DNA from: Acanthopleura granulata
Lineage: Eukaryota; Mollusca; Polyplacophora; Chitonida; Chitonidae
DNA length: 64,000 bases
NCBI GenBank assembly: GCA_016165875.1
Contig: JABBOT010000002.1
Coordinates: 32,539,642 to 32,603,641, forward strand
Direction of reading: 5' to 3'
The position numbers were made by a program, and so were the translations under genes. Every line of letters starts with the position of its first letter. The stretch's first letter is position 1. Shown here piece by piece: positions 6,339 to 57,486 of the stretch. Under the pieces are notes generated by a model that was not told the DNA's origin, made no database searches, and was given only the letters and a program-made list of their open reading frames with translations.

Positions 6339-6345
6339 TATAAAA
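6339..6345 (+). promoter_or_regulatory. TATA box of gene A
   Basis: 'TATAAAA' lies 266 bp upstream of the gene A start codon. It would place transcription start around 6370 and give a 5' leader of roughly 235 nt. A short upstream ATG at 6589-6591 opens a small out-of-frame uORF that stops within the real start ('atcatga'). TATA placement is inference; no transcript data are available. Confidence 0.55.
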
Positions 6346-6604
6346 TGCGAGGTCTCCGGCCTCGGTGAAGCGCTCTACCGGCTTACTATAGCTACACACG
6401 CTTCGACATTCGTAGTAAAACGTGTTTGCAATCCTGTGTGTACGGTGTCTGCTGACAAACCTCGGGCTGATTACGGCTGCGTCAGCTGTGCATGTACAGG
6501 GGCTGGGGTGTGAGACTACACATCTCCCCGAGGACCCTAATACCGGTACAAGAAAGAGACACTGTTGCATTTCCTGTCTTACCTTGGCCTATGTCGCCTT
6601 CATC

Positions 6605-6665
6605 ATGAAAACGCGATCTTGGGTTCTTTTGGCGGTGTTTGGCACCTACCTGGTCGGAACTACAG
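6605..6665 (+). CDS. Gene A, coding exon 1: signal peptide
   Basis: Encodes the first 20 residues plus one base of the next codon of a predicted 147-residue secreted protein. The start ATG has A at -3 ('atcATGaaa'). Residues 1-20 form a classic signal peptide: Met-Lys-Thr-Arg, a hydrophobic core 'WVLLAVFGTYLV', then Gly-Thr-Thr. The exon ends at a consensus donor ('ACAG|GTAACG', intron from 6666) in phase 1. Intron 1 runs 6666-9096 (2431 bp). Phase 1 fits the acceptor at 9096/9097 exactly, and splicing keeps the downstream frame open to a stop. A TATA box lies upstream at 6339. Gene B at 27174-27276 has the same arrangement of signal exon and phase-1 donor. Function unknown; export from the cell is the only role the sequence supports. 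Confidence 0.78.
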
Positions 6666-9096
6666 GTAACGTACTGGTTTTATCAATATATACATATACG
6701 TGTTGTTTTTGTTTTTTTTATTTTCAAACATTAACACATTCCATTGACTAGGAAATGTCTTAGGAACTGATATCATTGTTACAGGGTTTCCGATATTGAA
6801 ATACATGTATTTGACCTAGTGTCCTGCATGATATTTCTCAGGACAGGATTTATTATGATATACGCTCTTTCTTATATCTAATGGATTTCACAGGGCAATG
6901 ATCTGTTCTATAACTTGACCTAGCCCCTGGTTGCGCTGTGGAAATGTCTTTCATGTCAATGCATGTGGGGAAATTTAACCACAGAGCATATGTAGGTCAG
7001 TGGTATACAGTCAACAAAACCATAACTATACATCGTCCACGCGTACAAAATCAGCCTTCTCCAGTTTCCAGTTGAAAGTATGTCATAGTAAAATTACTGG
7101 GTTAGAAGTGTAAGAGGTCTAACCGAAGCCAAGCGTACTACCAGCACTCAGCTTAATGTACAACCGCCTAATCGTCAGAATTTTCAGCAAGCGACCACGT
7201 CATTCTAGAAACATAACCTTTTGAACTACTTTCTTGTCATTTCGCATTATATTAACGTTCTTTTTGTATATGAATTTGTCCATACCAGTATTTGCACATC
7301 TCTTGCGCGATAAATTTTACAGCTGACAGAGTGTTAATGTGACCATCGAAATAAGTCGAAGAGAAAGTTAGGTAGGCTTACTTAAGTTGATTGTGGGCAG
7401 CTACATACCATCACCTTGTGCTGTGCGGTGAGCAGTTTCTCCTAGCTTGCGGTATGGTACGTGCGATCTAAATTAGCGCTATACATGGAGAATAATAACA
7501 ATACAAGAAATAATAAATCGACACAGTACAAGAGAAATCAGAGCCAAACATATATAACTAGAGAGTTGCTGTCAACGTTAGCGTAAGCTTGTTTGTAGCT
7601 CTCTTTGGAAAACGTCCAACGGATCGACGGAAGCTCTTTCTCTTTTCTTGAGTGGGTGATTTTTCAACAGTGACCTCTTTTGATGACATGTTCACCGGCC
7701 TTGAAGAAAGTGCAGCCCAACGAGCAGGGCTTCAAACTGCCTAAGTGTTATCTGATTTGTTGCTTGCTCGACAGGCCTCTTGTTCGGCCCCATTAACCAT
7801 AGGATGGCCCTTTTTTATGCCTTCCTCATTTCAGTCATATGTTCTTTGTAGGTTTAGACGCAGCGTTGACTTTACATACCGTGTGGAAGCAGTTTGAATT
7901 AAAGTTAATACATGTAAAGTAGTGAACTCAGATATAACCGTCATTACAGAGAGTAGCAGTCATGGATATACCACAGTTAAGGCGATATCAGCAAATGTCT
8001 CCTTCAGAACAGCAGTGTAACACCACGCGCCATTGTAATGATCGATGTATGTATATCATTGGATGATAGTGCTTTTTGCGAGTAAAGCACTTGAAACGTC
8101 TCGAAACGTAGGCAACATCGAAAGCTTTCAATCTGTCAAATGCTCAACTCCAGATGTTAAACTTAACAGGACTGTTAAGATCAGCTCAACTTGTGTATAA
8201 ACCGGAGACGAGAATTTTGACAGAGAATAGATTCTTTCTGCCGACGAACATTTTTGGTTTTGTTCGGTACGAGTTGAGGTGGGGGTTGGTGCGGTGGGAG
8301 GGGTAAGTCTCGTACCTACCTTTATTAAAGAAATACAGAAAAAAAGTTTCATCTAATTATAGAAAGTTATTGTGCTAAATCAACGACTGAGAAAATTATT
8401 CTGTTCCCAGTCATGTATTAAGAGGTTGACTGCAGCTCCTATGGTTCGAAACGCTACACCAATGGCCGGTGATTGTAACCAGGAAAGGCTTGTGGCGCCA
8501 ACTTTGCTCACGAAAGGAATATCACGAAAAATATCCTATGATTGGTCATCTTTGTCTGGAACTATAACAGCGTGTTTACCTATTCAGAAACGCCTCGAGG
8601 GCTTGATAAAAGTAAGAATGGTTAAAATAATAACACAAAACAAAATGTCTGTTTGTTGTTCTTATGTGTGAAACAAGCAATAGCTGCTCATGAAAACTTG
8701 CCCGCTACAGTTGTTTGACTTGCTATACTTAAATAGCTATATGATGGGCATATCATGTATCGGTTGTGATGCTAGGTGATCGTGCTGGAGATGATCCAGC
8801 CGATGTAGTTACACACAAGAATTCTACGACACATCATTCGTTTTCAGGGAATCATTGGTCTTATGTCAGGTTACAGTAACGGCCTTGTGTCACGATATGC
8901 CATGCAGAAATAACCACGTAATGGGGCTCCGTGTTACAGAACAACCAATTGTTCTGTATGGCGATGATAACTTTCAGGAACTTGGAGTGTGTTTTTTTTC
9001 TCAGTTTTTGGGCGTGTACCTCGAAATGTACTTTAAGGCAATTCAACTCAACGCAACATTGTGCTATTTCACTGTTTATTCTTATTTCCGTTTCAG
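6666..9096 (+). other. Intron 1 of gene A
   Basis: Bounded by 'GTAACG' at 6666 and by 'ctgtttattcttatttccg' then 'tttcag' at 9096, a strong pyrimidine tract and acceptor. No other gene is evident inside. A 99-codon open frame at 8372-8671 has no domain-like features and I regard it as chance. Confidence 0.7.
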
Positions 9097-9479
9097 TGGA
9101 GGGCGTTCGTCCATTTTATCGACCCGAAAGTGCTATATACAGACGGCCTGGTCAGCGGTTCAAACCCACGAATAGTAAATGTTGTAAAATCGGAGAAAAG
9201 ACTGCTAAAAGGCGCAAGCCATGCAATATTGGACTTCACTATTTACCCGTGCGGTACAACTCTGTACATAGAACATCTAAACCCAGTGGATCTGGGGGGA
9301 AAACCTACAGCAAAGCTTTAGCTACAAAAATTGGCAAATGCTCCATTCGTTATTCCAAACACTTTGAAAAATGCTGCAACTACAGAGCGCAGTTCATTAA
9401 GGAACTTCGCTTGTGTAAGCGACGACCTGGCCGGGAACGAAAAAATTGCAGGGCTATGGTGCGGCGAAGGTATCCATAA
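9097..9479 (+). CDS. Gene A, coding exon 2: basic cysteine-rich mature protein
   Basis: Encodes residues 21-147 and the TAA stop (9477-9479). The mature part has no Asp, only six Glu and about 36 Lys/Arg. It starts with an Arg/Pro-rich leader (YRRPGQRF), then a cysteine framework CC-x12-C-x38-C-x10-CC-x12-C-x10-C (eight Cys), and ends in Arg-Arg-Arg-Tyr-Pro. The first CC is followed by x2-Gly, and 'HFEKCC' carries the last CC. Gene B shares the first six cysteines with almost identical spacing. The pattern recalls anaphylatoxin-like domains (CC-x2-G...C...C...F-x2-CC), but the middle loop is far longer, so homology is only a hypothesis. A Gly/Ser-rich piece (SGSGG) lies in that loop. I saw no AATAAA up to about 10450, so the 3' end is unplaced. 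Possible roles include extracellular-matrix, signalling or host-defence protein; none is shown. Confidence 0.78.
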
Positions 9480-11540
9480 CATAGGCCTATGTGACAGATA
9501 TATGCGTACAAAGAGATCACAGTGAACGAGCAGTGCACCCTTGGCATGTCCCAAGAGTGATACGATTACGAAATCGGATGGTGACCATGAAAACCGTTGA
9601 ACAAGGTGATTTCCTTAGGTGAATTATACAAAGAACAAAATCCCTGAGGACAACATATTCCTAACTCTATCTTTCCAGAGAAATGCATGAGAAAAGTTCT
9701 TGAAACAGTGAAATGGTCACGTTAGTTGAATTTACTGACAGTTGAATTCCATTTCTGACATCAGAACAGTGCTACAAGGACTGGTCAGTAGAACCGTCAT
9801 CAAGATGGTTACTGTTTTCCAAGTTCTCCGCTCCCTTCCCTTACACATCTGTCCGGTGTACGAATTATAGGCCTATGGTGTGTCGTATTGGCCAAATTGT
9901 GCACAGTAAGCAGTCCTCGATTCTTACAGTCTGAACTGTGACTGGGAATTGGGAAGTCAAATGATATCGTCATTCGAAGCGGGTCTTCAAGATCACGTGT
10001 TATAAAGCAGTTCTGTGATTCACGGGCCCGGTGCCTTCTTAATATGCCAAAAAGCTCTGCTTGTGTATTTGTGAACCTGGTTATATGGTGACTGTTTCAA
10101 CACATATAATCATGTACATGTACATAGTTGATAACAAGATCTGAAGCAGTCTTTGTGTTTATCTTATTCTGTGTTTGCGTCAGATTACACATAGGGTGCT
10201 GCAGTGTTCTTCTTCATCGTCGCCCAACCACTGAGAAAAGTCAACACTGATGTAATCTAATTTTTCTGTCTTACTTAATCCTGTTTTTACTATTTCCTTT
10301 CTCTCTAAAATGCATAAAAGGAACTTGAATAATCGTTTATAGTAAAGTAAGTTATACATTTGTTTTACTCCCTGGTTAAAATGTTTGTATGGAAAGACTT
10401 TTGTTAACTATTGATAGTTACCTGTCTTGTCTTGTTATAGAATTATTAATAATATTTTATATTGGTTTTATTTAAGATCTGCACCACATTGGATGTTGAT
10501 TCATAACTGATCTTCTCGTTTATTTCATTTTTCTTGTATATCTGTCTCCATGTTGTCTTTCACTTTGCATCTTTGAAGAAAACTGTTAATTTCCTTCCTC
10601 ATTTGTTTTACTCGACAAGCACCCACTCATGTATCTGGTGATTGTTGTCTGGAAATCTTCGAATGCAGTAGCTGTAGTATTGTAGTTCAGTAAATTATGT
10701 TGACTTTTGCTTGCTACAACGAGAGTTAAGTCTGCACCTTATTATGCTCCGCAACATTAGTTAACCCTTACGCTGTGAGCTGTTGGTGTTGCCATTTTCA
10801 TTCCTTAGCGATTTGTTAAAGAGTATCACGTGTAAATGCTATTGCATATGCCTGATTTGAAAAGTCAACATTATTCAAATTGTACATATTTTAAAGTGTT
10901 AAAAGATGTCTTTCTCAGTATTGTGTGTGGTGTTTTTAGGAGACTGTTGTAGGAAACACTTTCTGGTTGGTCCAAGTTTCAACCGTTGTTTGGTTAGTCT
11001 TTTCCCGTGAACAAAGACTTTAGTTGCTCATGTAATTCACAAACTTCCCACTGCCAGGTTTTATTGGATTGGATGTTACTCTCCTATGTACCGTGTTTAA
11101 ACATTGATTCACACAGGTTATCGGAGCATAGACCATTCGAAGCCGCATTAGAAGAAAGTGTATCCCCCGACCCCCGACCCCCGAGTCAGTGCTGTGAATT
11201 TCTTCCATCTTTATTGAGATAACTGAAACCCTTCATAATAGTTTCTTTAAGGATGATATGAAGAACGGTTACATGTGTAATTGCTAAACGCTAAGCCAGT
11301 GCGTGATTATTAAAGCATTAAACAGCGCTAAGCAGTGTTTGCCTGTTTAGTGTTAAACAGTGTCGTTATTAATGTTCACCAGTGTCGAGCTGTTAGGTGT
11401 AATGCGGTGCCTGGATGTCAGATCAAATACTGGTTGAACTGGATATGCCATTTAGATGTGTAATTATGTGCATATATTTTAATCTCTATAGGGTCCAAAA
11501 TTTAGCGCTCAAATGACGTTACACACTTGGACTTTGTGGA
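9480..11540. other. 3' flank of gene A; no other gene recognised
   Basis: Probably contains the gene A 3' UTR, but no canonical polyadenylation signal is visible in the first kilobase (nearest are variants such as 'cataaa' near 10313). The region from 10250 to 10950 is T-rich. No coding features recognised. Confidence 0.45.
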
Positions 11541-11810
11541 ATGGGCACCAGAATGCATGTTGCATTCATTGGAATACTTTTGGCGCTGGGTATGCTTCCT
11601 TCCTGCGTAGTCATACAACTAATCAGATGCTCAGTGTTAGTGTATAATATGGCAGGCTTAATGACATGCGTCACTTGTAGAGGATTCCTCCCAAACTTCA
11701 TTGAGCTGAGCTGCAACCCGGCCCTTCCTCTTAGACCTCGTACGTTTTACCTCTTCGCCCGTTACTCTGTTACCAGGACGACTGGGTATAAACGGACAGT
11801 AGTAACATAA
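11541..11810 (+). CDS. Candidate small secreted protein (weak)
   Basis: Open frame of 89 codons. From the second in-frame Met (11553) it begins with a plausible signal peptide, 'MHVAFIGILLALGMLPSC', followed by a short cysteine-containing tail ending at TAA. Both ATGs have a purine at -3, and a TATA-like 'tatatttta' lies near 11470. A possible donor, 'CTGG|GTATGC', falls inside the hydrophobic stretch in phase 1, so this could instead be a signal exon. I found no matching acceptor exon and no resemblance to genes A and B in cysteine spacing. This may be chance. Confidence 0.18.
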   Translation: MGTRMHVAFIGILLALGMLPSCVVIQLIRCSVLVYNMAGLMTCVTCRGFLPNFIELSCNPALPLRPRTFYLFARYSVTRTTGYKRTVVT

Positions 11811-12560
11811 CCGTGTACTTTGGACGCGTTCCAGCGATAAACTTACCGAGCGTATGGCTGCATTCTGTCGACTTTCTTTGACGTTAAGTCTATTTCGGCC
11901 AGCGCTGACCTTGGGGGTGAGGTGTGGAGTAACTGATGTTGGCCTGAGAAGATACCGTGATCCGCAGGAATTCATAATGTAAGAGAGGCGGTATCAAGAT
12001 TGTGTACACAAGGGTGCGGGTACTACGTACCACACAGCTGATGCTGGAGGCGCTGCATAGCATGAATCGTGGTACACATTCCACAGGCGGTCCGCGTTCC
12101 TCGACAAGACTTCTTGAGCAATGCTGACATTGCTCCAGGCCTGCGCTCCGTCAATGGGACTAATTTGTAGACGTGTTTATTTTGACCTCTGAGATGTTTC
12201 ATTGCTCCCGTACAATGACAGCAGCAATACTTTTTGATATGTTTCATGAAAACATTTCCGACAAAATACATAAAAGGCTTCACATGAGTGTACACTGAAT
12301 GGAGGTGCCGTCTTCTTCAGTACTTATAACTTACTTTCAATTTTAAGGGCTTTTCAGCTTTTAAGACGCTGTTTACAAAGGTAATGGCCAAAATATTATA
12401 TCTACCAGTTATAAGTTACAATCATTCATTCAGTCACTTGTTTATGAAAATTGTTTTTTTTTTTTTCATGTAAATACATTAAAAATAAATTTCTTCATCA
12501 GGAGCAGTATCAGACCAATTAAGCAACTAATATGAAGATAAATTTATTACTTTCATCGAT
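11811..12560. other. No gene recognised
   Basis: Overlapping short open frames on both strands, a T11-T14-type tract near 12453-12466, and nothing recognisable as a gene. Confidence 0.45.
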
Positions 12561-12840
12561 GAACCGCCTCGGTGGCCTGGTGGTTAGAGCGTCCACGTCG
12601 AGGTAGGGACATCCTGGATCAGTCTCTGGTCGGGTTCTACCAAACACTTTAAAAATGGTACTTGTTGCTACCTCGTTTGCCTTGACACTGAGAGGTTAGA
12701 GCAAGGAAACAAGACGGGTCGGTCCGTCTTCGGCATAATGCTCCGAGGCGGCACCACTTGGCGATATGGATACGCAGCATGGTACTCCGCGCCGTTATAT
12801 AACTGAAAAATTGTTGAGTACGGCGTAAAACCCAAGCATA
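12561..12840 (+). mobile_element. tRNA-derived SINE, second family
   Basis: The head 'ccgcctcggtggcctggtgg' followed by 'ttagagcgtcc' is tRNA-like (A box 'tggcctggtgg'), and 'ggtcgggttctacc' near 12628 is the B-box position. The body (12650-12790) is unrelated by eye to the SINEs at 3716 or 63748. The end, 'ttgttgagtacggcgtaaaa', matches their tail. The family therefore appears to pair a different head and body with a shared 3' tail, as expected if one LINE partner mobilises both. Confidence 0.8.
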
Positions 12841-13264
12841 CGTACTTTCATCGATATCGTCGAAATAACCACCGAATTGTTCGAGTGTATGTTTGAGGTT
12901 GATATATAGTAAACCGGACCAGTGACAGCCGGAGGACTGCTAAAGTTGATGTGGTTGTAAAATTCTTCTAGTATCATCCAAGTCGCACATCATCCAACTA
13001 GGCAGGAGATCAGTACCACCACGGTTTAGTATAACGCTTACACGATGGAACCAGTGGCTTGTCCACTTATTTCACGGAATTAATATTTGAAAAAACTCTA
13101 TGGCTGAGCAAGTCGTATGGTGCACTTGAACTAAAACTTTTGTTGAGAGCTCTTATCGCACTCAGCTGCTGGAGAAGACAACGTCATGATGACGAGCATA
13201 ATAATAATGGACATTTGCCATGCAGTTACTCTTGTCAAGATGTGTATATGTCCATTTGTATATT

Positions 13265-13480
13265 CTACAACTTTAGCCTCCGTCAAGGAGGCATTTTGAT
13301 CCCGAGCCTCTCACCAATGCGGTCGCTGTGAGTTTAAGTCCAGTTCATGTTGGCTTCCTCTCCGGTCCGCCAGCAATCTGCGGATGGTCGTGGGTTTCCC
13401 CCGGGCTTTGCTCGGTTTCCTCCCACCATAATGCTGGTACGGCGTAGAGCACCAGTCTAATAAATAAATAAATTTCCTAC
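13265..13480 (+). mobile_element. tRNA-derived SINE, head truncated
   Basis: Starts within the head ('gagcctctcaccaatgcggt' with 'cgctgtgagtttaagtcc' as B-box region), continues with 'ctgcggatggtcgtgggttt', 'ccgggctttgctcggtttcc' and 'taatgctgg', then has a shortened tail 'tacggcgtagagcacc' and (aata)n. The segment that normally reads 'ccgtcgtataagtgaaatattcttg' is deleted. Confidence 0.88.
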
Positions 13481-14271
13481 AGCTTACTCCAGTGATTGAT
13501 TGCTTGGTTGACTGTTCGATTGACTTGCCAGCAAAGCCTATGGTTCTTTGCTGTCTTTGGCAATGACGGGCATGTGCACTTAGCAGCAACAAATAAATTT
13601 AAAAAGAAGAGTTATCTCAAATGTGCGCCATAAACTACCATATGTGGGTTGTTTTCTGTAAGGGCTTTGCTCTACGTGGTGATGGGTTGGCAGGGATTGA
13701 TAGGCTCGCTGCTAAAATCAAGATTGATCAGATAGAGGCGACCCTAACTGGCTCCTCACGTAGTGTAATCTCCTGTTTATCTAGCTATTCCATCCGGAAC
13801 ATGGCATGAAGCTCTTCCGCCTCTTGTCATCCAGTTACCATGGAATATCCGGCTTTCTTTGCTTTCAATCACTGAATCCAGCATAATTGCTTCTCTAAAC
13901 GGACACACTTCTCGTGAAATATAAAGCAAATCTCTTAGACTCGGAACACGAGTGCTGAAAGGTCAAGTGAATACGTGTGTAATGAAGGCTGGTTTTCTTC
14001 AGTGGCGATGATGTAGGGAAGGTAAGAGGCACGTTTGACCCTCTTCCTACACCCCCGCACTCCCCCCGACCCCACTGCGTCTTCCTTTGCCTTTTGTGTG
14101 ACGTCCTGCGGATCGACCCTCGACGAATGGAGCCGCGTGCTCGAATGCCACTCTCACTGGGTCGGTTGACGCTTTATCAAAAGGATTGCACGGTTCCTGG
14201 TGCAGATCGACACTTTTATTCGGACTTTGATTCGTCTTCTTTCCGCTGCATACAAACCTGATCACCATGTT
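13481..14271. other. No gene recognised
   Basis: Nothing recognised beyond short chance open frames. Confidence 0.45.
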
Positions 14272-14335
14272 ACAAGTCCCAAGATTCTTGAATACGGCGT
14301 TTAACTCTAATAAAATAAACACAAAAATGTTTGAA
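14272..14335 (+). mobile_element. SINE tail fragment
   Basis: 'caagattcttgaatacggcg' followed by 'tttaactctaataaaataaa' is the 3' tail of the SINE family with the head and body missing. Confidence 0.55.
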
Positions 14336-14469
14336 GTATCTACCCACACTCAATCTGCCCCTTTCTTTCCCAGTCCTCCGATGCTTTCCTTCACATGCAC
14401 CCAGTCTAACGATGACATCCAAATGCTAGCAGATACCACTCTGCACTCAGTCTACCCTATATTTACCCT

Positions 14470-14960
14470 ACATTTTTTCTGACGCCTATTTTCTCACACT
14501 CTTTCTGTCGCACTCTCTTTCTCGCATATTCTTTCTAGCGCTTCTTCTCTCTTCTCTGGCGCCACTTTTTTGTCGTACACCTTCTGGTACCTGTTTTCTG
14601 TCGCACTCTTTCTGATGCCTCTCTGGCACTCTTTCTGGTGTCTCTGCTTCCCTCACATTCTTTCTGAACCCTCTTCTCTCGTGATCTTTCTGGTGCCTCT
14701 CCTTCCCTTGCATTCTTTCTGGACCCTCTTGATTCGTCACATTTCTGGTACCACAAAGAATGCCTGACATCATATCTGACACCAGCAACTGAAGAGAGGC
14801 TTTCCTCACATTCTTTTTTTTTGCGATTTTTCTGGTCCCTCTCCTTTCCTCACATTCTTTCTCCCTTTCTGTGTCTCTTTCCTGTGCCTCGCTTCGTTTA
14901 CTCTTTTCGGCGTCTTACTTCTCTCACATTCTTTCTGACGTCCGCCTCCCACAATTGCGA
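14470..14960. repeat. 55-bp pyrimidine-rich degenerate tandem repeat
   Basis: The + strand is almost pure C/T. 'attctttctg' at 14657 recurs at 14712, and 'ctttctggtg' at 14631 recurs at 14686, both 55 bp apart; earlier and later copies are less regular. On the - strand this reads as frames very rich in Arg, Glu and Lys (14809-14486 and 15000-14806). I take these as by-products of the biased composition, not as a protein. Confidence 0.8.
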
Positions 14961-15309
14961 CATACCCCAAAAGTTGACCATTTGGTAAGGCTCTCCACAT
15001 TCAGCTTTGTTTGATTAAAATCAGCCAGGCAATGTAAAGATATTGAACTGACGAAACGGAAAACAGACATACTCGAAAAGCAGATTTAGTGCTTAAACCG
15101 AATTGAACTTAATTTCGGCTCTTTTGTTCTGGAGACGTCTCCGAGACATGGTTATTGTCTACTACATTGTAAAACTGCTGACGATCAAGCTGACGGATAT
15201 AGCCCCAAGGTTAATTAACTCTTCAGGCCTTTGCCGTCAGGTTTCAAGACACATTTGGTGAAAACTGGCCCGTTATGTCAGGTGATATTGTGTGGGCATG
15301 GTTACTAAC

Positions 15310-16142
15310 AGTTGTCATCATGGAACTTTCGCTTTTCGAGTGGCGCGTAAGCACCGCGGGACCTACAATGTGTTTCGCGCTCTAAAATGTTGACCTTCTG
15401 ATGGAGGACTTTTATCGGTAAATATCTTCAAAAATAAGCCTCACAACCATCCAGAAGTTCATCCAGAAAAGTTTATCCAGAAAATCACTAGCGTCTGTAC
15501 GGACCTATACCAAAAGATCCCACGGACGAACTCGTGTTTTTCCCGTTTTCACTTTCTCTACCATATTTCCCAAAGGTAACAGCACAGACCATCACGTGAC
15601 TCAAGCTACCTGGCGCACACATGTAGGCCAACATGTAAGAGACGTCACACTATCGTGGACATTTTTTCCCTGATAGTCAGGGCGGATTGAAGAGATTTTC
15701 CTGAGATAAAATTGTTTCAAAGGCAAAAGACTGCGCGAGTTGATAACAAATCATAAAATGATCGCCTGGATATCAGGCAAATGACAAACATGACAAACGA
15801 CATGGCTAAGGTTACGACCTTGAGATCAGCTGGAACTCTCGCGCAAACACGAGGCCCATTTTGGACGTTGTTGCTGTCATCCGCGTGAAATATGATAAAA
15901 AGACGAAAATGAAGAAAAAAAAAAAAGATTAAGGTCCGTCAGTGGGATTTTTGGATATTGTCCGTATACACGCTAGTGGTTTTCTGGGCAACTATCAGAT
16001 GGATGTGTGGCGTATTTTGAAGATATTTAGAATTAGAAAATAGAATTAGAAAATGGATATTTCAGAAAAAGAAACTCATGGTGAGTCTCGCTGTGCTTAC
16101 GCGCCACTCGAAGAAGCGACCGATACATTGTTGCAACTAGGT
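15310..16142. mobile_element. Fold-back (long inverted repeat) DNA element
   Basis: Two arms of about 200 bp are inverted copies of each other. The left arm, about 15310-15530, begins with 'cgcttttcgagtggcgcg' then 'taagcac'. The right arm, about 15932-16142, carries the complement 'gtgcttacgcgccactcgaa'. Inner parts also pair: 'taaatatcttcaaaa' (15420) with 'ttttgaagatattta' (about 16014-16028), and 'actagcgtctgtacgg' (15488) with 'ccgtatacacgctagt' (15962). The loop of about 400 bp has no transposase. No clear target-site duplication is visible. It looks like a non-autonomous DNA transposon of MITE or fold-back type. A 49-codon open frame at 16053-16202 is largely arm sequence and is not a gene. 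Confidence 0.85.
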
Positions 16143-17409
16143 TACAGGTCGACATCAGAAAATATAAACATCATACCTGTGTGTTGTGGGAAGAACAAAT
16201 GATTATACGTACGGGTAAGTCAGCGTTTAGGTTTCAAAGGAAACTGTAATCTTTGTGCGCCAATATCGTGGTATAAGGGTTGCAAGTTAGAGTAAAAACT
16301 GCCGAGTACAAGAAGGAGGAATGTATTTTCCCTCTTTTCGTCCTAGGCTATGGATACATCTCAGTGATGGATTTATCTGGTGTTATAAACGCTGTTTCGA
16401 CATTATCAATGGGAATGAACGGTTAATGTGGACAGATTGTTAAAATAACTCCACCAAACGAGCTTACAGAGGGAGCAATGGTTCGTCCAAACAATACCGG
16501 CTTCCGGGGATCTGTCACGTATCAAATGCACTACTTCCAACACTGATATACTTCCAGGGCAAGGAAGTTGAGGGCGTTTGTATATCTCATGTGCTATGTA
16601 GGTTTCTGGAATTGTATCCAACTCAATTACCATAATCACAGGCTGTAGTAGAGTGTCAGTGGCTGTGTGGAGTGGCTATGTAACTTATACTGGAGCTGAC
16701 GCAAATTCCTCCTGTAAGCAGTTCCCCTATCTTTGCTGCCACCAGGCGGCTTCCGGTCACACATGCTAGCTACAGCTCAAGATGGGTAGGTGTTTGTAAA
16801 CAGCAATGTTTTAGAACAACTCCCTGCGACATTTGGTGGATGCCTTTCCTTGTACTCGTCCATAGCCTTGTGGTTTATTCAGTGTTTACGATAAGCTATA
16901 TCAACAAAAACCGTTCATTCTAAAAACGCCCCAAGCAAAAGGAATACAGTTATGCTTACTGTGATCTGTTCTAGTCATCAGAGAGTGTAAATTTCATTTA
17001 AACCTAAATGTCTTCATCTGACTTTATGAAAATGCTAGCGTTACTTCGTCTTTTAGCTCGGTAAGAGATGGCTGAGGTACCAATATGACACATCACAGTA
17101 GATCTAATCGCCCAAACCAAACAAACAATCAACAGCCATTGATGTGAAATACTTAAACAGAGAACAAACTACTACATGTACCAGGTAAGAGACTGATGTA
17201 TTGAATGGAGCCGTGTATTATAATTGTAAAGTCACTTCCAAATTAAAGTAAAGCAGGGATAATATAAAAATTGCGAGGGAATTAGTCCTTCATGGGTTTT
17301 GATGTTCTCGTATTAAATATTAAACTTACAAGTACATATAGAACATTGAGTTTGGACAGAAATGGTTTTAAAACTATCTGCATGAGAATTATAGCTCTCA
17401 TACCTGTTA
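16143..17409. other. No gene recognised
   Basis: AT-rich sequence with scattered donor-like sites (for example GTAAGT at 16215 and CAG|GTAAGA near 17185) but no open exon leading into them. Confidence 0.45.
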
Positions 17410-18300
17410 GAAGGTTTTGGGATGGAGGCACTAATTATCATGACAGCCACGGAAATTTATACACAAATGGTCACCCTCACCTATGTTTGTCACCTTTGTA
17501 TGTATGTATTCACCCCAAAATGGAAATGGACACATCTGAGTCGCGACACATGGTCGTCCGCGTAGCTGTGTATCAGATGAAAATTAAAACTATATATGGA
17601 AACTGGTTGGAGTTGTAGCAATGACACGAAATCATATCCATTTATAAAGTATTTGCAAGATACTGGCGTTCTGGCAAAATTCAACAAGGCTGAATCGCAA
17701 TACATCATCACCAAGAACTAAAACTGAATGTAAACAAAAATTAAAATTCTGCATGGAAAACGAGTTGTATTACTACAGACTGAGTATATATAGTAAATGA
17801 TGATCTGGTTACCATAACAACCACAGAAATGGACAATAATGAGTTGCGACACAAAATCACATCTGCATCCATGCATCCACCAAAAATTAAAACTGCACAT
17901 GGAAAACAATTGGAGTTGTAGGCCGGACATGAAATCATATCTATTTGTACAGTATATGTAGTGATAATTGCAATCTGGTTACCATGGCGACCGTGAAAAT
18001 GACCAAATGTGAGTCGCGACGCCTCATTTATATCTAAGTTTCCACCAACTATCAAAACAACTGCAGTTGTAGCCTGGACACGAAGTCACATGTACTTATA
18101 CAGTATATATAGGAAATGGTGATCTGGTTACTGAGACATGTTACTAAGGCCGTGGAAATGAACAAATGTGAGTGGCGACACATCATCACATCTGCGTTTG
18201 TGTATCCACCCAAGATTAAAACCGTACGTGGAAAAGAGTTGGAGATATAGCCCAGACACGAATACGGACAGACGGACAGACAGATTGACAGACGGACAAA
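17410..18300. repeat. About 170-bp degenerate repeat units ending in a (GACA/GACG)n run
   Basis: Blocks of the form 'atctggttaccat' - 'gaaatg' - 'gagtcgcgacac' - 'aaaattaaaactgcacatgg' - 'ttggagttgtag' - 'gacacgaaatcatat' recur. 'ctggttacca' at 17806 and 17976 lies 170 bp apart, and the next copy begins near 18125 (149 bp). An older copy starts near 17430. The array ends in 'gacggacagacagattgaca' at 18264-18300. The similar - strand open frames between 17490 and 18327 are by-products of this repeat. Confidence 0.78.
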
Positions 18301-21199
18301 ATCGCTATACCAATGTACGCCCGCCATCAGTGATTAGCGATCTTTTACCAGCACGCGTCATTACAATATGCGTGTAATACTCGAAGGCACTGCACGGTTA
18401 ACCCTCTTGAACCCTTTAAGAGCGCCCCAGTTTCAGGCCCAAAATGAAATGACAGTTCGTGATTTTTGAATTGTTTTTATAGAGGAAAAAACAGGTTGGG
18501 AAACGACCTTTTCGATGTTCTTCATAAATATAATTAACTTATACAGACAACTTGCTTCATGTATTGATGTACATGTATGTAATAATATTATTATCACCCT
18601 TTTCCCCTATCATCAGAGGCTTTAAGTCTGTCGCCACTTAAATCGCTTAATCACCATCGCTATTTAACAAGAAATAGTGAAATCATTATGTAATTGATGT
18701 ATTTGCGTCCCCCCCATCGCTTTAACCTTGTCTGAGCCGATGGTGGGATCTCATGTTGCAGCTGCAGGGCGGCTGTGGCCGACTTGCACGAATTGGATTA
18801 ACAATTTGATATAACCATAATATTGTTTCTTTAACCACTTACTAAATGACATCCAACAATTAGAGTCAAAGTCCGCGTCTATCCACCACTTAGCACGCAA
18901 ACAGAACCACCCTTTCCCGGTTTCGTCTGATTGTATGGGCGGACAGGTCGAGTTTAGGCCGTTCTTGTGAGTGGTGGGTTTCAATACCGAACAGCTTGGT
19001 GCTAACTGCACGTACTGAATCTATAGATATTTGTGACCGACGACTTGTGAATTAATGAATAAAATGTCTTGTGTACGTAAAGTTGTATAGGCTTCATTTG
19101 TGACTTTGTCCGGGAAGCACACCTCAGGGAATACACTCGAGCAGTACATGTACGTGGATATCAACGAGCTCAGGCACGAAGGTCACCCTAACCTTGACAT
19201 TACGCTTTCGCATCACATCAAATGACCTCGTTCAGATGTAAACGTGAAGGACGTAAACCATGAAGGCCATGGGTATTTTAAGCCTCATTACAAATCTTAA
19301 AAGAGAGCATCTCCTCAAAGCGTACCAGTTCATGTCAACTTCTAGGACCTGGACGTTTTCTTCAAAAGCCAAATACACGTCTGGTTCTCCCAATCGTTTT
19401 CTCAAAGGCGGGTTGCGGGTTGTGTACCGTGACATGATCTGACACACCTCTGTCTGAATTCCTCCGGGTAATCACAAGCTTTTACACTGATATAGCTATA
19501 ATTCTCGTTCTGCAATCGTGTAAACTGAAAAAATTGTCCAACACAGTTACTCTGGCCAATGGATCATGAAGTATTCATGATTAATTTAAAAAAAAAACCA
19601 ACAACAAATATTTATTGTAAAACTCCAGTGGGACTGGAAGAATTACACGATTGGATTAAGGTCTCGCTTCTTCAAATATAGCGGTAAATTTTAATCCTAT
19701 CAAGGGTAAATATTATTGTAAACCTACAAAGCCGGATGCCATGATATTCACGCAAATATGGACTTCGTGCAACGAGTTCATGACCTTTTCCAATTTGCCT
19801 GATGCCAATATTCAGGCACTCTATCTGTAACATCTCTAAATAGCGAGAGCTGGATTCAAACAGGCGACTGCACTGGTCGAAGCGCGAGTCATCAAGGCCT
19901 TAAGCGTCAGAGCCCGCAGGGTTTCTTTTTGGTCACCAGTTTGATGAATGAAGGAAACCAGTTTGCCCGAAGTAAAGTAACAAGCCTTTGGCATACCACT
20001 GGGGAACTTTGCCACGTCTGATACTCGTCATATTGACGGAAGACCAGCGGCCTCTAGCGAGCTTCATGTAAGTTCACGGAAAGAACCACTTCCTGTCACC
20101 AAAACCACGAGAACAATGGAAGCAAGAGAAACTTGGAAATCCAAGCTTGGAGAATAGGGTTGAAATCTTGGAACGTAACCCAGTCAGCTACGCCGCATGG
20201 ATTTCCAGTGGACTTCCACGATCACTAATAACGGCCTCGAAGTGAACCGCTAGAGTTACTATTAACCGTTACTATTGAACGACAGAGTGAAGAGAACAAT
20301 TTAACACGAGTTGTGTAAACGCTAGGACTTTCTATCAGTTTATTAATCATGGATTAAGTTCAGTTTGGGAACATACAGGAACACATACTGACCGGTTTCA
20401 CAAGCAATTGCGTTATCATCGACATGCAACTTCCGGTTCTCCCTCGACTATATGCCCGACTATAAAGACTATCATGTGGACTTTTATCAAGTATCTAACA
20501 ATGGTCATGTTTTCGGCAATAAACCAGCTGACTTTTTCCACGATTGTGCGACCTGGAATCCAACATGCTCCCAACTGCCCTATTAACACTTCTGCCACAT
20601 CGTGCATACATGTACCCAAATCCGATGACTCTTAAATCCTGTCCATTTCCTTCCGTCGCATGGAAAACCGCGTATGACACAAATTAGCACAAATACAACT
20701 GACACAACATACATCCACCCGAAATGTTGCTGTATTCGGCTGCTTTCGCCCGCATAATGATGACGAAATCAGTAGAAATAATCGTAAATGTGCATACTTA
20801 CATTCTATGACAATATCGCCGTCCTGCGGGATGTTCTAGTCCATTAGAAGGTAGTAAGAGTTGTTAGTTGTAAACAGCCAAAGATTGGCAATGTCGTCAA
20901 CACCAACAAGTCAGTTACATTAGTTATTTAGCTTTTAGTCACTTAATTATTATTATGTAGTGTCTTCAGTAACAGAGATTAACAATGTTTAACCCTTGAG
21001 GTTCAATTTGTAGATCACAATTCCTTTGTAAACACATTGCTTTAGTAGCCATGTTAGCCTAGATTTAGTGGTCTTAGTAGCTACGGTTACCTTATAGGCT
21101 AACGGAACTTTGTGCAATTTGCCCCAAGGTTGGTTTGACAAACACTATAGTAGAATCAATCGCACGGAACTACCATGACGGGTGACGTAAATATTTCTC
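18301..21199. other. No gene recognised
   Basis: Nearly 3 kb with only short, overlapping open frames (longest 86 codons at 19011-18751 on the - strand). No domain, signal peptide or repeat seen. Confidence 0.45.
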
Positions 21200-21350
21200 G
21201 CTATCATAGTTATGGGCACATCGACCACACTGACAGCATACCGTATTCCCATCTCATGGTACTTGTGTGATACAATTACGGAACATTTCTTTGTCGTAGT
21301 TACAGATACATAATTGTCATGGTAGTTACAGGCACATAACTGCCATGGTG
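21200..21350. repeat. Short 26-27-bp tandem repeat
   Basis: 'gtagttacagatacataatt' followed by 'gtcatg' is repeated as 'gtagttacaggcacataact' followed by 'gccatg'. A weaker copy precedes ('catagttatgggcacat'). Two to four copies in all. Confidence 0.55.
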
Positions 21351-21443
21351 ATGTACAAACATCGTTACGTTACTGGCGCTTTGTGAAATCGCGCCTAAGA
21401 TACAATGGCGTAGAGATGTTGTCTATTGATGATTACTTCCATC

Positions 21444-21449
21444 TTTATT
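21444..21449 (-). terminator. Candidate polyadenylation signal of gene B
   Basis: 'TTTATT' on the + strand is AATAAA on the - strand. It lies about 280 bp downstream of the gene B stop codon, a normal 3' UTR length. The hexamer is common in AT-rich DNA, so placement is tentative. Confidence 0.45.
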
Positions 21450-21726
21450 TCTTAATTTTAAGACCTTTCCCCAAATACTAGCTATATCCTTCCTCTTAAC
21501 TGAAACTAGCTTGATTTTATACAGATATGCCATATCTCTTGTTCTGGATAAGAGCTGCTCTACCCCAAAATATGTTTTTGCCTTTTAATCGACAAATGCA
21601 CACACCATTTTTCATTCTCATTGACACCTGCAAGCGCAAAAGTAAATATGTATTGTGGAAAATTAAAACATATAAGCCCAGAAGAGAAAAGATGTGCTGT
21701 ACAAGATTGTGAGTCACGAGAGAACC

Positions 21727-22043
21727 TTAGTAACCTCTATTGGAGACCTTGTATTCATGGTACATATGCCATCGGTGCATTTCCCGCCGCTCCACTGTAG
21801 CCGCATAACAACATTTATTAAATTCATTTGCCCTGCCAGCCAAACATTTCTGGAACGTGTACATAAGCTCCTTGCCGTATCTTGGAGCATAATATCTACC
21901 ATACAAGTTTGTTTTCCTCGTGTGCCCCTTCCTTCTGTTTCTTGATTTTAGGGCTGATTTGTAGAATTGCGCATGGCAATGGAAGCCTTTGTCCCCCGCT
22001 AATCTTCCCAGCATGCAACAGGACAAATGAGATCGAGGAACTT
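21727..22043 (-). CDS. Gene B, coding exon 2: basic cysteine-rich mature protein
   Basis: Encodes the last 105 residues of a predicted 139-residue secreted protein, with TAA at 21729-21727. On the - strand the acceptor is textbook ('tttatttttatctttttcag', then AAGTTCC). Its phase completes a Glu codon with the G left by exon 1. The cysteine framework CC-x12-C-x43-C-x10-CC (six Cys) matches the first six of gene A. The Gly three residues after the first CC ('CCMLG') and the Phe-x2 before the last CC ('EFNKCC') are also shared. The middle loop is rich in Lys, Arg and Tyr; the tail after the last CC is rich in Arg, His and Tyr and has no Cys, unlike gene A. No N-glycosylation sequon was seen. 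Conservation of frame, phase and spacing makes it very unlikely to be chance. Function unknown; an anaphylatoxin-like fold is a hypothesis. Confidence 0.8.
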
Positions 22044-22514
22044 CTGAAAAAGATAAAAATAAATGTACCACTGAGCGATTCACTTGCATTCATTTACATC
22101 CCTTAATTAGGTCATTCAGTATATAGTGCTGCATTTCTCAAGAACTGTTTCGAATAGATCTAATCTCGCAGAATTTCGCTTTTGACATCAGAATTGATGT
22201 CTGTTACTCCTCAAATGCTAGGGATTTTTCCTATCAACTAAAAATCCTAATTAGATATCAAAACGACCCAAATTTTTTTTTATGATTATTGCAAAGCTGC
22301 TGGCTCATCGACCATACACGCCATGCAGACCGGACTATCGCAGGCTTCTTCTCTTTTGGCGGCCACCTTGGTCAGGCTTTCCACATTTTTTAAGGTCAGG
22401 AACACTCAAGGCCTAAATCATATATGGGTGGAGTTCTTTTGTTTGAAGGCCATAAACTTATTTTACAAATCCGTCAACCCAACAAATCATCATAAGTCGA
22501 AACATTATAAGAAA

Positions 22515-23000
22515 CAGCTTAACCTGTCCAGCAGCACGAGGGTTTCAACGGCCGGACCAGGCCAGCAGGACGGCCGGTTCAGCATCCTCACCTGTCCATT
22601 AGATCGGTCTATCTGCATGATCAGTCCAGCAGAACGACCTCGTCCTTCTGCACGATATGACCAGTAGAACGGTCGGTCCATCTGCACGATGAAGTCCAGA
22701 AGAACGACCGGTCCAACAGCCTGATCTGCCCAGCAGCACGACCGTTCACGACCAATCCAGCAGAACAGCCAGTTAAGCTGAGCCTGACCAGTCCAACAGA
22801 ATGACCGGTTCCTTTGCACGATTAGTCCAGCAGAAGTAACCTGATAGGTGCCCAGCCGCATAAGCGGTCCAGGTGCACGACCAGTAGAGCAGTACGACCG
22901 CTTCTGAAGCCTTCGCAGCCCATTTGCACGACCTGTCAGCTGCATGAACTGCCCAGTTGCACGACCCGTTCATCTGCACGACCGGTCCAATACCTTGGCC
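22515..23000. repeat. 35-bp minisatellite inside the gene B intron
   Basis: The unit is built on 'ccagcagaacgaccggtcc' plus 'atctgcacgatnagt'. Anchors 'ccag' at 22626, 22661, 22696 and 22730 are 35, 35 and 34 bp apart; copies on either side are more irregular. The array is GC-rich for this region and holds a 146-codon open frame on the - strand that simply reflects the repeat. Confidence 0.88.
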
Positions 23001-23439
23001 ATTTCGACAATCTGATTGGTCTAGACAGAAACAGCGACGTGGTCCACATATACAAACTGTTTCACGAAGACACAAGACAATGAGTTATAACATACAAACC
23101 TTTGAAGTAATCGAGAACATCTCGTGGACTGTCTCGGCTGTTCGGTCCTTGGCCACTGCCAACGCTTTCTGCCAAATCCTCGTCATCGGAGTCGGCTTGA
23201 TTCAACATGAAGTAAGCGGCTCGCCTCCCATATGTCACCCTTCTCCTTCCAATGTGCATTAAATAATCTAACAACAAAACGTAAAACAAAATGACCCGCT
23301 ACAGTAATCCGGTTCCTTTTATAACATACAAGTACCAATCAACTGTCGTTCTTGTAAACAGCGGCAACATTTTCTTTCATATTACGTCGGAGGTTAACCT
23401 GTTTTCAAACACTTTTACATATGATGCGGTTACCCTATT

Positions 23440-23700
23440 ACAAAGATAGTGGTGGTTGACCTTATTATGGCCGAAACGCTTACCACATTACACAGACTGA
23501 AGTGATTACCCCATTACACAGACTGAGGTGATTACCCCATTACACACACCGAGGTGATTACCCTATTACAGAGACCGAGGTGATTACCCCATTATATATG
23601 ACCGAGAGACCGAGGCGGTTACCATATTACACAGTCCGAGGCGGTTATCATATTACACAGACCAGAGAAGTTAGCCAATTAGACACACAGAGGCGGTCAC
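23440..23700. repeat. 26-bp minisatellite inside the gene B intron
   Basis: The unit is 'gaggtgattaccccattaca' plus 'cagacc'. 'gattacc' anchors at 23504, 23530, 23556 and 23582 are 26 bp apart. Later copies read 'gaggcggttaccatattaca' and drift to about 23700. Confidence 0.92.
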
Positions 23701-26700
23701 TTTAATACATTGGCCGTGTCAGTATGTATGGGTCTCAGTCAACGTCAACAGCTCTTCAATTTATGCCACACGGCGTAAATGAACAACACAGTGAAATGTA
23801 AATCATTCAGATGATTTAAATGGATCGTTCATTAATTGATCAATAAAATGTTGGTGTGTCTTACTCGTAATGCGCTGCGAGCTGCCCCAATTTGCTTTTA
23901 TTTTCTACAATTTTAGATGGTAAGCAGTTGATGTATGAATGTCCACTGTAAGTTTACACTGCATCGCTCACATATCAACCTACGTTCATTCAGGCCGACG
24001 TGTTTCCGCTAGCAATATGTCAGCGTGACCCATAATTTTGTTGTAAACAATTAACATGTGGGTTGTGTTTGCTTTGTAGCGGGCTTGAAGGCAAAACGTG
24101 ACGAGGGAAGAGGAGTAACAGAAATCTAGTTTCTCCCAGATCATGTTCATTTTCTGCGCTCTTGGTTTGTACTGTTCCCCATTTTAAACATGTTCTCGCC
24201 TTGATAAGGCCGCAATACTGCCTAAATGCCACTAAATCATGCTCATTCACTAAGAGAGTCCTCCACCCATCTTCACGCTGTCTTTCACTTTCTTCCGTTA
24301 TGAGAAGCATTACATAAAAAAGTTCTAACTTTGTCAGAAAATCAAGTTTATAATGTTCCGGCTTTTTACGAGTTTTATTCCACTGCGTTTGCCATGATTT
24401 ACTGGTGATAAGAAAGCATGACATGATACAAACATGGGAATTTATGCCGTTGATAAATATCAAATCTCTTTCGGTTTATATCAAATCTATGATCTCTTCT
24501 TTTAACACTAGCACACTGAAATGAGAATTAATAAAACATATGTTAGATATTCCGGAAAATTAATAAATCCGTGAAACTTTAAGGTCACTTAATTCCCCCC
24601 CAAGCTCCACTACCATCCACCCACCTTTCCCGGTCAGATTCATCAATGTTGAGAAGTTAGCAGTTCATTCGTTCACCTATATTCAAACATCAAGTAAATT
24701 TTTATTTTCATTTCCTCCCGAGAAACGCAGTGGTGTATATTTAACACACCACGCATTCATTTGTAACGTCGTTCAGTTTTATGTCTTCCCTGATAACCTG
24801 TAATTAGTGTAATTTTGCATTGTTGAATCAACAAACAGCCTTCATGTAGCTTGCACACTACGCAAGTCCTTGCGAAACTTGCCTGCAGATGATTACCTAA
24901 GTTCGGCATGTCTTTGGAGAGTGCTGTGGCGTGCTGCTATCACGTTCCTGAAGTCGCGCGCTATGATTCCACTGTCTCGCGCGCTCCATCACGTGTTTAC
25001 ATTGCCGACTGCCAATCACGCTGTCTGACAGATGTCAGCACACAGGTGTTTCCATGAACCACAATCAGTTTCAACACAAGTGGTCGATAGCCTTAAACGA
25101 AACCAGATCTTATTGCGGTTAGCACTCATCCATGTGCCACTCAACTTCTAGGACCAATTTCTAGAGGAATTATGAGCTTTCGTGTTTATGTTTTGTTTAA
25201 CAATTCGTCTTTCTTTACCCAGCGGCTGGATCCGAGGACTGCGGTTAAGTCCCTTATGCGTGGTTTTAAAACATCACACTTTTTTCACCTGCTTGCCTGG
25301 GCTCACAAAACTGGTTTGTCATTTACCGTTATAGCAATAAAAGGTCTTTTGTTTTAATAAGAGAAATATACTAACGCCAAGATGGACATGGTCTATTCGG
25401 TGATTCCATGAATGATATGTGATGTTGGTCGAAGAGCTTGCAGTCGTCAGCTGCTCTTTGTGTATTACTCTTTGGCTTTCTCCCGTACGTACAAATATTC
25501 TGAAAATGAAACTGGAAATGGGCTATTTCCCGGGTATATAAAAAGCAAATTAAAACAATTCACAGCTACCAAAACCTGACAAAGTTTTGAACAAATACAC
25601 TTTATATTAGCAGATTTCATGTTTCTACAGTAATAACCTACCTAACTTTAAAACTAATGGCTCATAGCTCTTAGTATTTCATTTTATATTCATTTGAGAA
25701 CAACACTGAAAGTGTTCCGAAACGGTGTTTAATATATTTACTATTGTATCAAATTTGTCTTTGAAACTGTTTACCCTTGATAAAACGCGCGTATTTTTCT
25801 ATATCGTATGCCTCCTGGGTGTTCCGGACACAAAGCTTGGACGTAAAGCACCAGATCTAGATTTGTGATGAGTCTACATATATCACTACTGTCGATGTCC
25901 AGCACAGTTCACGTGTGAAGCATGTGTATGCGTGAGAAGTTTCCTGCAAAGGCTATATAATTCTCGTTTGAGTTGCGTAAAGAGAGCATGTGCAAGACAA
26001 CGGCCACCGGAACGGTACAGTCTTTTCCTCATTAAACCAGGTGGACTCTTCTGACATCGGAGAAACCTGCCGCGCACACTTTATCGATTAAAATAATATT
26101 ACTTTTTCTGATTAATAAACTTGAATCGGGTTATTGCAGACATTCCCGAATATCATCACCCTTTATTTAACAGTGGACGAAATATATTGTTGAATGGCTC
26201 AACGTAGCGACGAATGCATAGAACACAGGACCTGGGGATCACGTCTTAAGCGGGATATTTAAGCTGTGGACAAAGTTGATGACACGACAACGGAGTGAAG
26301 GTAATGGGATGTATATGTCGCCTCGACGCTAGCCAGCTGACAAGGGCTATTTTGAGAATTCGCCAATTAGGGTTTTCGAATTGTCGACGGAGACGACATT
26401 CGACCGTTCACAGCCGGAGGAGGTTCATTGTTTGAATGTCAAATGTTAAAATCGAGCTTCCTCTCAGTTTACGGCCACATTTTCCCAGCCGCTGTCTGAC
26501 AGATTTGACAAACAGAAGGGACTGTTGAAGGAGCCCTCCTGAAGCGAGTTGAGACAGTTTTCTCAAGAACTGTCACAATCTCTCGCGAAGCGGCTCTTCT
26601 CTCTTAACATACGTATTATATAAACGTGGAGAGTTAACAATTTAGGCACAAGCTACGAGGTTACGCCAACGACTTGGTGTCACTATTTTCGAAAGAAGAG

Positions 26701-27173
26701 AAATGACAGGAGAAGATTGGGGTCAGGCTTACTCTCCGTCTAAATGTCTGACAACTTGGTGCGAATTGCGGAGAACAAACACCATACCACTTGAGTCTTT
26801 TCATCTGCCACCGGAGTGAGGAATCTGTTAACGACAGATTCTTACATGTACATATATATGTTCAGCCAAAAATTGGAAAAATAATTCTAGAATTAACCTG
26901 TTTTAACTAAATGTGTTAAACTAATCGCTAAATATAAACATTGCAATGAGAACGAACTTTTCGAAGAATCTTCTAGAATCAAAGAAATTGCGTACTAACA
27001 ACAACCTGCTTCGCAATCCAGCGATGTTCCACAGAGAGAGAAAACATACGGGAGAAGTATGCTGGCGTTATCGGGTTATCAGCTGATCTTCACCGACTAC
27101 AGCATGCCTGAAGATCAAGTAACTTAAGAGTAGAAACTCTGTCCCAATGCAAGGAAGCCCTCTGTTTGCCTAC

Positions 27174-27276
27174 CTGTAAATCTGTCTCTTCCGTGGCGAC
27201 TGGCCGGTCGCGAGCCCAGGACCGCAGCGATGTCCGTCAGGCAGATCACCACACATATAAACAACACCGATTTCAT
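27174..27276 (-). CDS. Gene B, coding exon 1: signal peptide and basic N-terminus
   Basis: Encodes residues 1-34 plus one base of a predicted 139-residue secreted protein. The ATG (27276-27274) has A at -3 ('aagATGaaa'). Residues 1-21 are a strong signal peptide, with core 'SVLFICVVICLTDIAAVL', followed by a basic stretch starting 'GSRPASRHGRDRF'. The exon ends at a consensus donor 'ACAG|GTAGGC' in phase 1, as in gene A. The only well-formed phase-1 continuation I found that also carries the family cysteine pattern is 22043-21727. A closer alternative acceptor at 26682 would add just 13 residues before a stop and is less likely. Upstream on the - strand, 'ttaatttttattttccag' (acceptor at 27340) suggests a 5' UTR intron. 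No clear TATA box is assigned. Confidence 0.75.
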
Positions 27277-57450: not shown

Positions 57451-57486
57451 TCCATTGTCCAAGAAGCTGGCCTGGAACTGATAATT

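What the first reader, a model, noticed from the sequence alone, without database searches (positions are those of the whole stretch)
6339..27276. Two convergent paralogous genes for a secreted, highly basic CC-x12-C-xn-C-x10-CC protein
Gene A (+, 6605-6665 and 9097-9479) and gene B (-, 27276-27174 and 22043-21727) were assembled independently from splice signals and proved to match. Each has a signal-peptide exon ending in phase 1, one remaining coding exon with an acceptor in the right phase, and the same six-cysteine spacing (12, 38 or 43, 10 between groups). Both also share a Gly three residues after the first CC and a Phe three residues before the last CC. The proteins are very basic (gene A has no Asp in its mature part). 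Sequence identity outside the cysteines is low, so they are old or fast-evolving duplicates. I do not recognise a named family. This is the best candidate in the window for an undescribed system, such as a lineage-specific family of secreted effectors, matrix proteins or signals.
Basis: partly seen in the sequence, partly recalled or inferred. Interest (0 to 1): 0.88.

Follow-up and report, generated by a model that had tools for sequence, protein, structure and literature searches.

The report
Unnamed ancient family of secreted proteins
Two neighbouring chiton genes encode secreted, cysteine-rich proteins; one belongs to a well-conserved protein family shared by molluscs, worms, spiders and horseshoe crabs that appears to have no name or known function, and the other looks like its fast-changed neighbouring copy.

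Summary
The genes are real and related, but gene B was mis-assembled and is not lineage-specific. Gene B has three coding exons: a middle exon (23267-23100, minus, 168 nt, phase 1-1) was missed, giving a 195-aa protein 87% identical (169 of 195) to Liolophura sinensis LOC135481988. A profile search listed 61 homologues, none with a Pfam domain; the 21 named species are annelids, nemerteans, molluscs, chelicerates and a centipede. Architecture: signal peptide; FxDYL motif; acidic linker, in 13 of 38 with an acidic GSG like a glycosaminoglycan attachment site; basic six-cysteine core (CC-x2-G-x9-C ... C-x7-F-x2-CC). Gene A keeps the cysteine/Gly/Phe frame, expected by chance about 1e-6 times per window, but lacks FxDYL and the linker exon. 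Its similarity beyond that frame is slight (70 of 2000 shuffles reach it). I read A as a diverged neighbouring paralogue. The frame resembles the anaphylatoxin (ANATO) domain, but Pfam ANATO does not match and fold searches were inconclusive. Function is inferred only: a secreted ligand or small proteoglycan whose acidic linker shields a basic, heparin-binding-like core.

The parts
6605..6665 (+). Gene A exon 1: start codon and signal peptide, ends in phase 1
   Evidence: sequence and translation; hydrophobic N-terminus by eye, no signal-peptide predictor available
9097..9479 (+). Gene A exon 2: mature N-terminus VRPFYR..., basic core with the CC-x12-C-x38-C-x10-CC frame, stop codon
   Evidence: single locus at significant E in the genome; family-profile score 7.7 bits, 5 of 2961 Cys-fixed shuffles reach it
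27174..27276 (-). Gene B exon 1: start codon, signal peptide, mature N-terminus SRP...RFT, ends in phase 1
   Evidence: 32 of 34 residues identical to P0001
23100..23267 (-).
   Evidence: tblastn with P0001, splice signals, 42 of 56 residues identical to P0001
21727..22043 (-). Gene B exon 3: six-cysteine basic core (CC-x12-C-x43-C-x10-CC) and stop codon
   Evidence: 95 of 105 residues identical to P0001; 119.5 bits to the family core profile
6339..6345 (+). TATAAAA, possible TATA box of gene A
   Evidence: read from the sequence; not tested
6492..6608 (+). Upstream ORF whose stop (TGA at 6606) overlaps the gene A start codon
21444..21449 (-). AATAAA, possible poly(A) signal of gene B

Best explanation
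Gene B is the chiton orthologue of an unnamed, ancient family of secreted proteins found across protostomes, and gene A is a diverged paralogue lying about 12 kb from it. SHOWN: the three-exon structure of B (by match to a relative's protein and splice signals), the homologues, the invariant cysteine/Gly/Phe frame, an acidic linker followed by a basic core, and predicted helices. INFERRED: the protein is secreted; the six cysteines form three disulfides holding a small helical core; the acidic linker, which in some members carries an acidic GSG like a glycosaminoglycan attachment site, neutralises or masks the basic core (directly or through an attached chain) during storage or diffusion; and the exposed basic core, freed by proteolysis or by in-frame skipping of the linker exon, binds a receptor or matrix glycosaminoglycans. 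Gene A, with no acidic linker, would be a form that is always exposed. About 0.97 that B is a real family gene, 0.85 that A is its paralogue, 0.3 for the linker-shielded ligand/proteoglycan mechanism.
For: 61 homologues at E <= 1.1e-5. Of 52 with a complete core (the pattern used requires CC-x2-G), 52 have x12, 47 have x10 and 39 have x43. Invariant in 47 aligned rows: both CC pairs, both single Cys, Gly three after the first CC, Phe three before the last CC, one Arg and two further Gly. Linker net negative in 34 of 37 members and core plus tail net positive in 37 of 37. Acidic GSG in 13 of 38 linkers (gene B and its orthologue P0001 among them), shuffle mean 0.36, maximum 4 over 2000 rounds. 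AF2 of P0001: helices 99-108, 115-124, 146-160, 162-194; ten-residue means 89-95 over 101-120 and 151-195. Gene A: frame expected 1.2e-6 times per window, neighbour of B, [RK]P at the mature N-terminus as in 17 homologues that show it together with FxDYL, 0 of 300 Cys-fixed shuffles reach its mean score. The review PMC8418075 (passages) gives Ser-Gly with nearby acidic residues as the usual xylosylation context and reports prohormones that carry chondroitin sulfate.
Against: No expression, glycan, receptor or disulfide data. The GSG site is absent in 25 of 38 linkers, among them all 4 named annelids, Tubulanus, Strigamia and the Limulus and Tachypleus rows, and spiders make up much of the 13; relatedness is not corrected for in that test. 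The middle loop of the AF2 model (121-150) has means of only 49-66. No fold match supports a ligand fold. With Cys, Gly and Phe all held fixed, 70 of 2000 shuffles of A score as well, so A's kinship rests on the frame, its place and its N-terminus. Gene A's exon structure differs from B's. No A orthologue was found (9 candidates, none at E <= 1).
Confidence: 0.5

Rival explanations
1. A divergent anaphylatoxin (ANATO) domain family: the core is an ANATO fold with a longer middle loop and one extra helical turn, used as a stand-alone secreted complement-like mediator or fibulin-like matrix module.
For: Same order of features: CC, Gly +3, C after x12, C, Phe -3, CC, then a long C-terminal helix; helices in the AF2 model. 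The ANATO signature itself is recalled, not from a call.
Against: No ANATO hit in Pfam for A, two-exon B or any of 47 members; no PDB sequence match of the profile. Middle loop 39-68 in members and 38 in A, and mostly x10 instead of the recalled x6-7 before the last CC. Fold searches were inconclusive.
Confidence: 0.3
2. Gene A is unrelated to B: a separate secreted basic Cys-rich protein (for example an antimicrobial or sperm protein) that shares the frame by convergence.
For: Best overall identity only 24-26%; residual similarity with the frame fixed is marginal (70 of 2000); exon boundaries differ; two extra cysteines.
Against: Frame expected 1.2e-6 per window and 0.011 per genome, yet A lies next to the only other copy found; RP at the mature N-terminus.
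Confidence: 0.13
3. Structural extracellular-matrix or biomineralisation protein of the chiton (shell plate, sclerite or radula) rather than a signal.
For: Secreted, basic and Cys-rich; chitons have many mineralised tissues (established knowledge).
Against: Gene B's core is conserved in unshelled annelids, nemerteans, spiders and a centipede, so mineralisation is unlikely to be the ancestral role; it remains possible for gene A.
Confidence: 0.15
4. Gene A is a decaying, untranscribed copy.
For: No orthologue found in the protein database; high divergence; an upstream ORF overlaps its start codon.
Against: Intact 127-residue exon-2 frame, good splice signals and all six frame cysteines kept.
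Confidence: 0.12

Closest known systems
Liolophura sinensis LOC135481988 (P0001) and the 60 other unannotated homologues
   Same: Gene B: same three-part architecture, same spacing, 169 of 195 residues identical to P0001; orthologue of P0001 and member of this family.
   Different: Gene A lacks the FxDYL motif and linker exon and has two extra cysteines.
ANATO / anaphylatoxin-like domain (Pfam PF01821; complement C3/C4/C5, fibulins)
   Same: CC-x2-G-x9-C ... C ... F-x2-CC order of conserved residues (ANATO side recalled), helical core predicted.
   Different: Longer middle loop and longer C-to-CC spacing; no profile or sequence match; stand-alone protein with an acidic linker.
Small secreted proteoglycans and glycosaminoglycan-bearing prohormones (PMC8418075, passages)
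   Same: Acidic cluster next to GSG in the linker of 13 of 38 members.
   Different: No glycan shown; the site is missing in 25 of 38; no shared protein domain found.

Membership tests
Unnamed protostome family (alignment A5) | CC-x2-G-x9-C, then C-x7-F-x2-CC core | tested here: met
   A and B both match.
Unnamed protostome family (alignment A5) | Profile match: gene B | tested here: met
   225 bits for B with the full profile; 119.5 bits with the core profile. The profile contains the orthologue P0001 but no window sequence.
Unnamed protostome family (alignment A5) | Profile match: gene A | tested here: inconclusive
   13.0 bits, second of 2217 window ORF pieces, E 0.014, 7 of 2000 Cys-fixed shuffles reach it; 5 of 2961 Cys-fixed shuffles reach 7.7 bits; 70 of 2000 reach its mean pairwise score with Cys, Gly and Phe fixed.
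Unnamed protostome family (alignment A5) | FxDYL motif and linker between signal peptide and core: gene B | tested here: met
   RFTDYL and SDDEDLAESVGSGQG, encoded by exons 1 and 2.
Unnamed protostome family (alignment A5) | FxDYL motif and linker (common, not universal: 37 of 61 homologues show motif plus core; many others are truncated ORFs): gene A | tested here: not met
   No such exon found in its intron; only the [RK]P N-terminus is shared. A is therefore called a diverged paralogue, not a standard member.
ANATO (PF01821) | Pfam profile match | tested here: not met
   No ANATO hit (A, two-exon B; P0001-P0004; 47 members). HMMER filters drop weak matches; no profile-profile test was possible.
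ANATO (PF01821) | Cysteine spacing of the recalled signature (short middle loop, x6-7 before the last CC) | tested here: not met
   Middle loop 38-68 and mostly x10. First half (CC-x2-G-x9-C) and F-x2-CC are met.
ANATO (PF01821) | Fold and C1-C4, C2-C5, C3-C6 disulfides | tested here: inconclusive
   Helical model; fold searches gave no confident match of any kind; coordinates not available for a disulfide check.
Proteoglycan core protein | Ser-Gly with nearby acidic residues | tested here: met
   Gene B linker and 12 other linkers, 13 of 38.
Proteoglycan core protein | Glycosaminoglycan chain attached | not testable with these tools
   Needs glycoproteomics.

The most novel reading that the evidence does not exclude
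A protostome-wide family of secreted ligands, undescribed as far as these searches show, in which a glycosaminoglycan-bearing acidic linker encoded by its own skippable exon masks a basic ANATO-like disulfide core. Chitons have duplicated the gene and produced a linker-free, permanently active form (gene A). If so, ANATO-like signalling cores exist outside complement and fibulins as free-standing signals.
Probability: 0.2. Interest if true: 0.82.

Novelty: new variant of a known kind. Interest (0 to 1): 0.6.

Why it matters
A secreted protein whose core is this conserved over four animal phyla, yet had no Pfam, NCBIfam or PDB-sequence relative in these searches, is a likely unrecognised extracellular signal or matrix component. 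Its short, well-defined core, three-exon structure and presence in tractable animals (spiders, Limulus, Capitella, Lineus) make function directly testable. For gene models it also shows how a symmetric exon can be missed without breaking the frame.

Tried and rejected
Rejected: 'lineage-specific effector' for B; 'shared two-exon architecture'; 'many copies in the genome'; a viral source (27 pattern matches in viral contigs, none confirmed by tblastn; 43 viral fold rows, none at E <= 0.001); DNA primase, PAZ and similar Pfam rows. The match of 15 of 47 members to DNA_primase_S has best E 0.003 over all members; for gene B it was 14.1 bits against a cut-off of 26.8, and it makes no sense for a secreted protein.

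Full report
What was claimed and what is there. Gene A (6605-6665 and 9097-9479, plus) is as described: 61 nt and 383 nt exons, phase 1, CAG|GTAACG donor and a pyrimidine-rich TTTCAG acceptor, open to a stop at 9477-9479. Gene B's first and last exons are as described. The only two matches in the six frames of the window to CC-x12-C-x20-60-C-x10-CC, also with Gly +3 and Phe -3, are A and B; 60 Markov windows gave 0 of either, and one match to a pattern with relaxed spacing. An analytic estimate from dinucleotide frequencies gives the Gly/Phe version 1.2e-6 times per window and 0.011 times in 606.5 Mb.

Where the window lies. The genome held as G000 has 606,523,666 bases in 87 contigs. Passages of PMC7850002 give 606.9 Mb and 87 scaffolds for the chiton Acanthopleura granulata, so the window is very probably from that species (inference). 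PMC12441733 (passages) explains that the assembly published as L. japonica is L. sinensis.

Gene B corrected. A profile of A and two-exon B found the L. sinensis protein LOC135481988 (P0001, 195 aa) at E 7.9e-60. The window's own bases give a counterpart of its whole length in three exons: 27276-27174, 23267-23100 and 22043-21727. Identity to P0001 is 32 of 34, 42 of 56 and 95 of 105 residues by exon. Seven of the 10 homologues whose core starts within 45 residues of their first Met have letters unlike the family up to DVP... and match from there (P0002, P0012, P0017, P0018, P0021, P0022, P0033). This is what genomic ORFs give when an intron ends at that point, the place of B's last intron. 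The Tachypleus model P0055 goes from YFE directly to STKKDKEV, while Limulus P0048 has EDYL...GTKKDKEV between. That is consistent with the first intron lying before DYL in horseshoe crabs as in the chiton, with a skipped or missed linker exon. These are inferences from protein models, not from mapped genes.

The family. A search with five family sequences returned 61 proteins, all at E <= 1.1e-5, from 5725 candidates. None carries a precomputed Pfam domain, and the names given by sources read uncharacterised, hypothetical or unnamed, or are bare sequence labels. Twenty-four rows name an organism, 21 species: L. sinensis and Gigantopelta aegis; Tubulanus and Lineus; Paralvinella, Ridgeia, Owenia and Capitella; spiders, Limulus, Tachypleus, Centruroides and the mite Dinothrombium; and the centipede Strigamia (placements recalled except the two looked up). 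No insect, nematode or deuterostome is named.

Anatomy. Of 61 homologues, 52 have a complete core by a pattern that requires CC-x2-G. Spacing is x12 in 52 of 52, x43 in 39 and 39-68 in the other 13, and x10 in 47. In 47 aligned members (14 fragmentary, garbled or near-duplicate rows left out) the invariant residues are the six cysteines, Gly three after the first CC, Phe three before the last CC, two further Gly in LAGDKG and one Arg. Many members start, after the signal peptide, with [RK]P and a Y..F[DE]DYL motif (17 of 61 show both by the pattern). The linker is net negative in 34 of 37 and core plus tail net positive in 37 of 37. Thirteen of 38 linkers, gene B's and its orthologue's included, hold GSG with at least three acidic neighbours; shuffled linkers give 0.36 on average and at most 4. 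The 13 come from chitons, Lineus, spiders, a scorpion and unnamed rows like them, so they are not independent counts; the 4 named annelids, Tubulanus, Strigamia and the Limulus and Tachypleus rows lack the site. Gigantopelta P0061 has a GSG after SDDEDL but was not counted, having no FxDYL. PMC8418075 (passages) describes Ser-Gly with nearby acidic residues as the usual glycosaminoglycan attachment context and lists prohormones that carry chondroitin sulfate.

Gene A. It scores second among 2217 window ORF pieces with the family core profile (13.0 bits, E 0.014; best single stretch E 0.057), and 7 of 2000 Cys-fixed shuffles reach it. With the full profile 5 of 2961 reach it. Its mean pairwise score to 53 cores (52 homologues plus gene B) beats 300 of 300 Cys-fixed shuffles. 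With Cys, Gly and Phe all fixed, 70 of 2000 shuffles reach its mean score to the 52 homologue cores. A direct BLASTP of A against two-exon B gives only E 0.013. So the kinship is carried mainly by the frame, the neighbouring position and the VRPFYR N-terminus, which resembles VKPFYR in the Strigamia member. It has no DYL/linker exon that I could find and its intron lies before, not after, the RP motif. Genome searches with gene A, P0001 and a Limulus member returned only these two genes at significant E; other queries did not complete.

Mechanism. Most likely a secreted ligand or small proteoglycan: a disulfide-held helical basic core masked by an acidic, sometimes glycosaminoglycan-bearing linker on a separately spliced exon. 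Secretion, disulfides, masking, glycan and receptor are all inferred. Gene A would be a linker-free, more basic derivative, perhaps with a new role.

Verdict. The function is open.

Noticed in passing
56613-57891, minus strand: Pieces of a retroelement of Ty3 type (RNase H, zinc-binding integrase and weak integrase-core matches) in different frames; further open frames up to 60108 had no Pfam match.
   Followed up: partly
6492-6608: A 38-codon upstream ORF ends in a TGA that overlaps the gene A start codon (ATGA), and a second short one starts at 6591; possible translational control or an unrecognised 5' UTR intron.
   Followed up: no
142-846, 2172-2515, 23480-23693, 37357-37579: Minisatellite arrays with units of about 31, 45, 26 and 46 bases.
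   Followed up: no
P0055 (Tachypleus tridentatus LOC143233794): A family model that jumps from YFE to STKKDKEV without the linker, which suggests that the linker exon is skipped in frame or missed there.
   Followed up: partly
P0061 (Gigantopelta aegis LOC121379888): Gastropod member with a strongly diverged middle core (39-residue loop, no RNxNRAHN stretch) but an SDDEDL...GSG linker like that of the chitons; the family may be decaying or changing in gastropods.
   Followed up: no
P0027, P0029, P0030 and similar rows: Several unnamed ORFs carry the core (their first Met lies inside it) followed by long charged tails, hinting at variable C-terminal extensions in some lineages.
   Followed up: no
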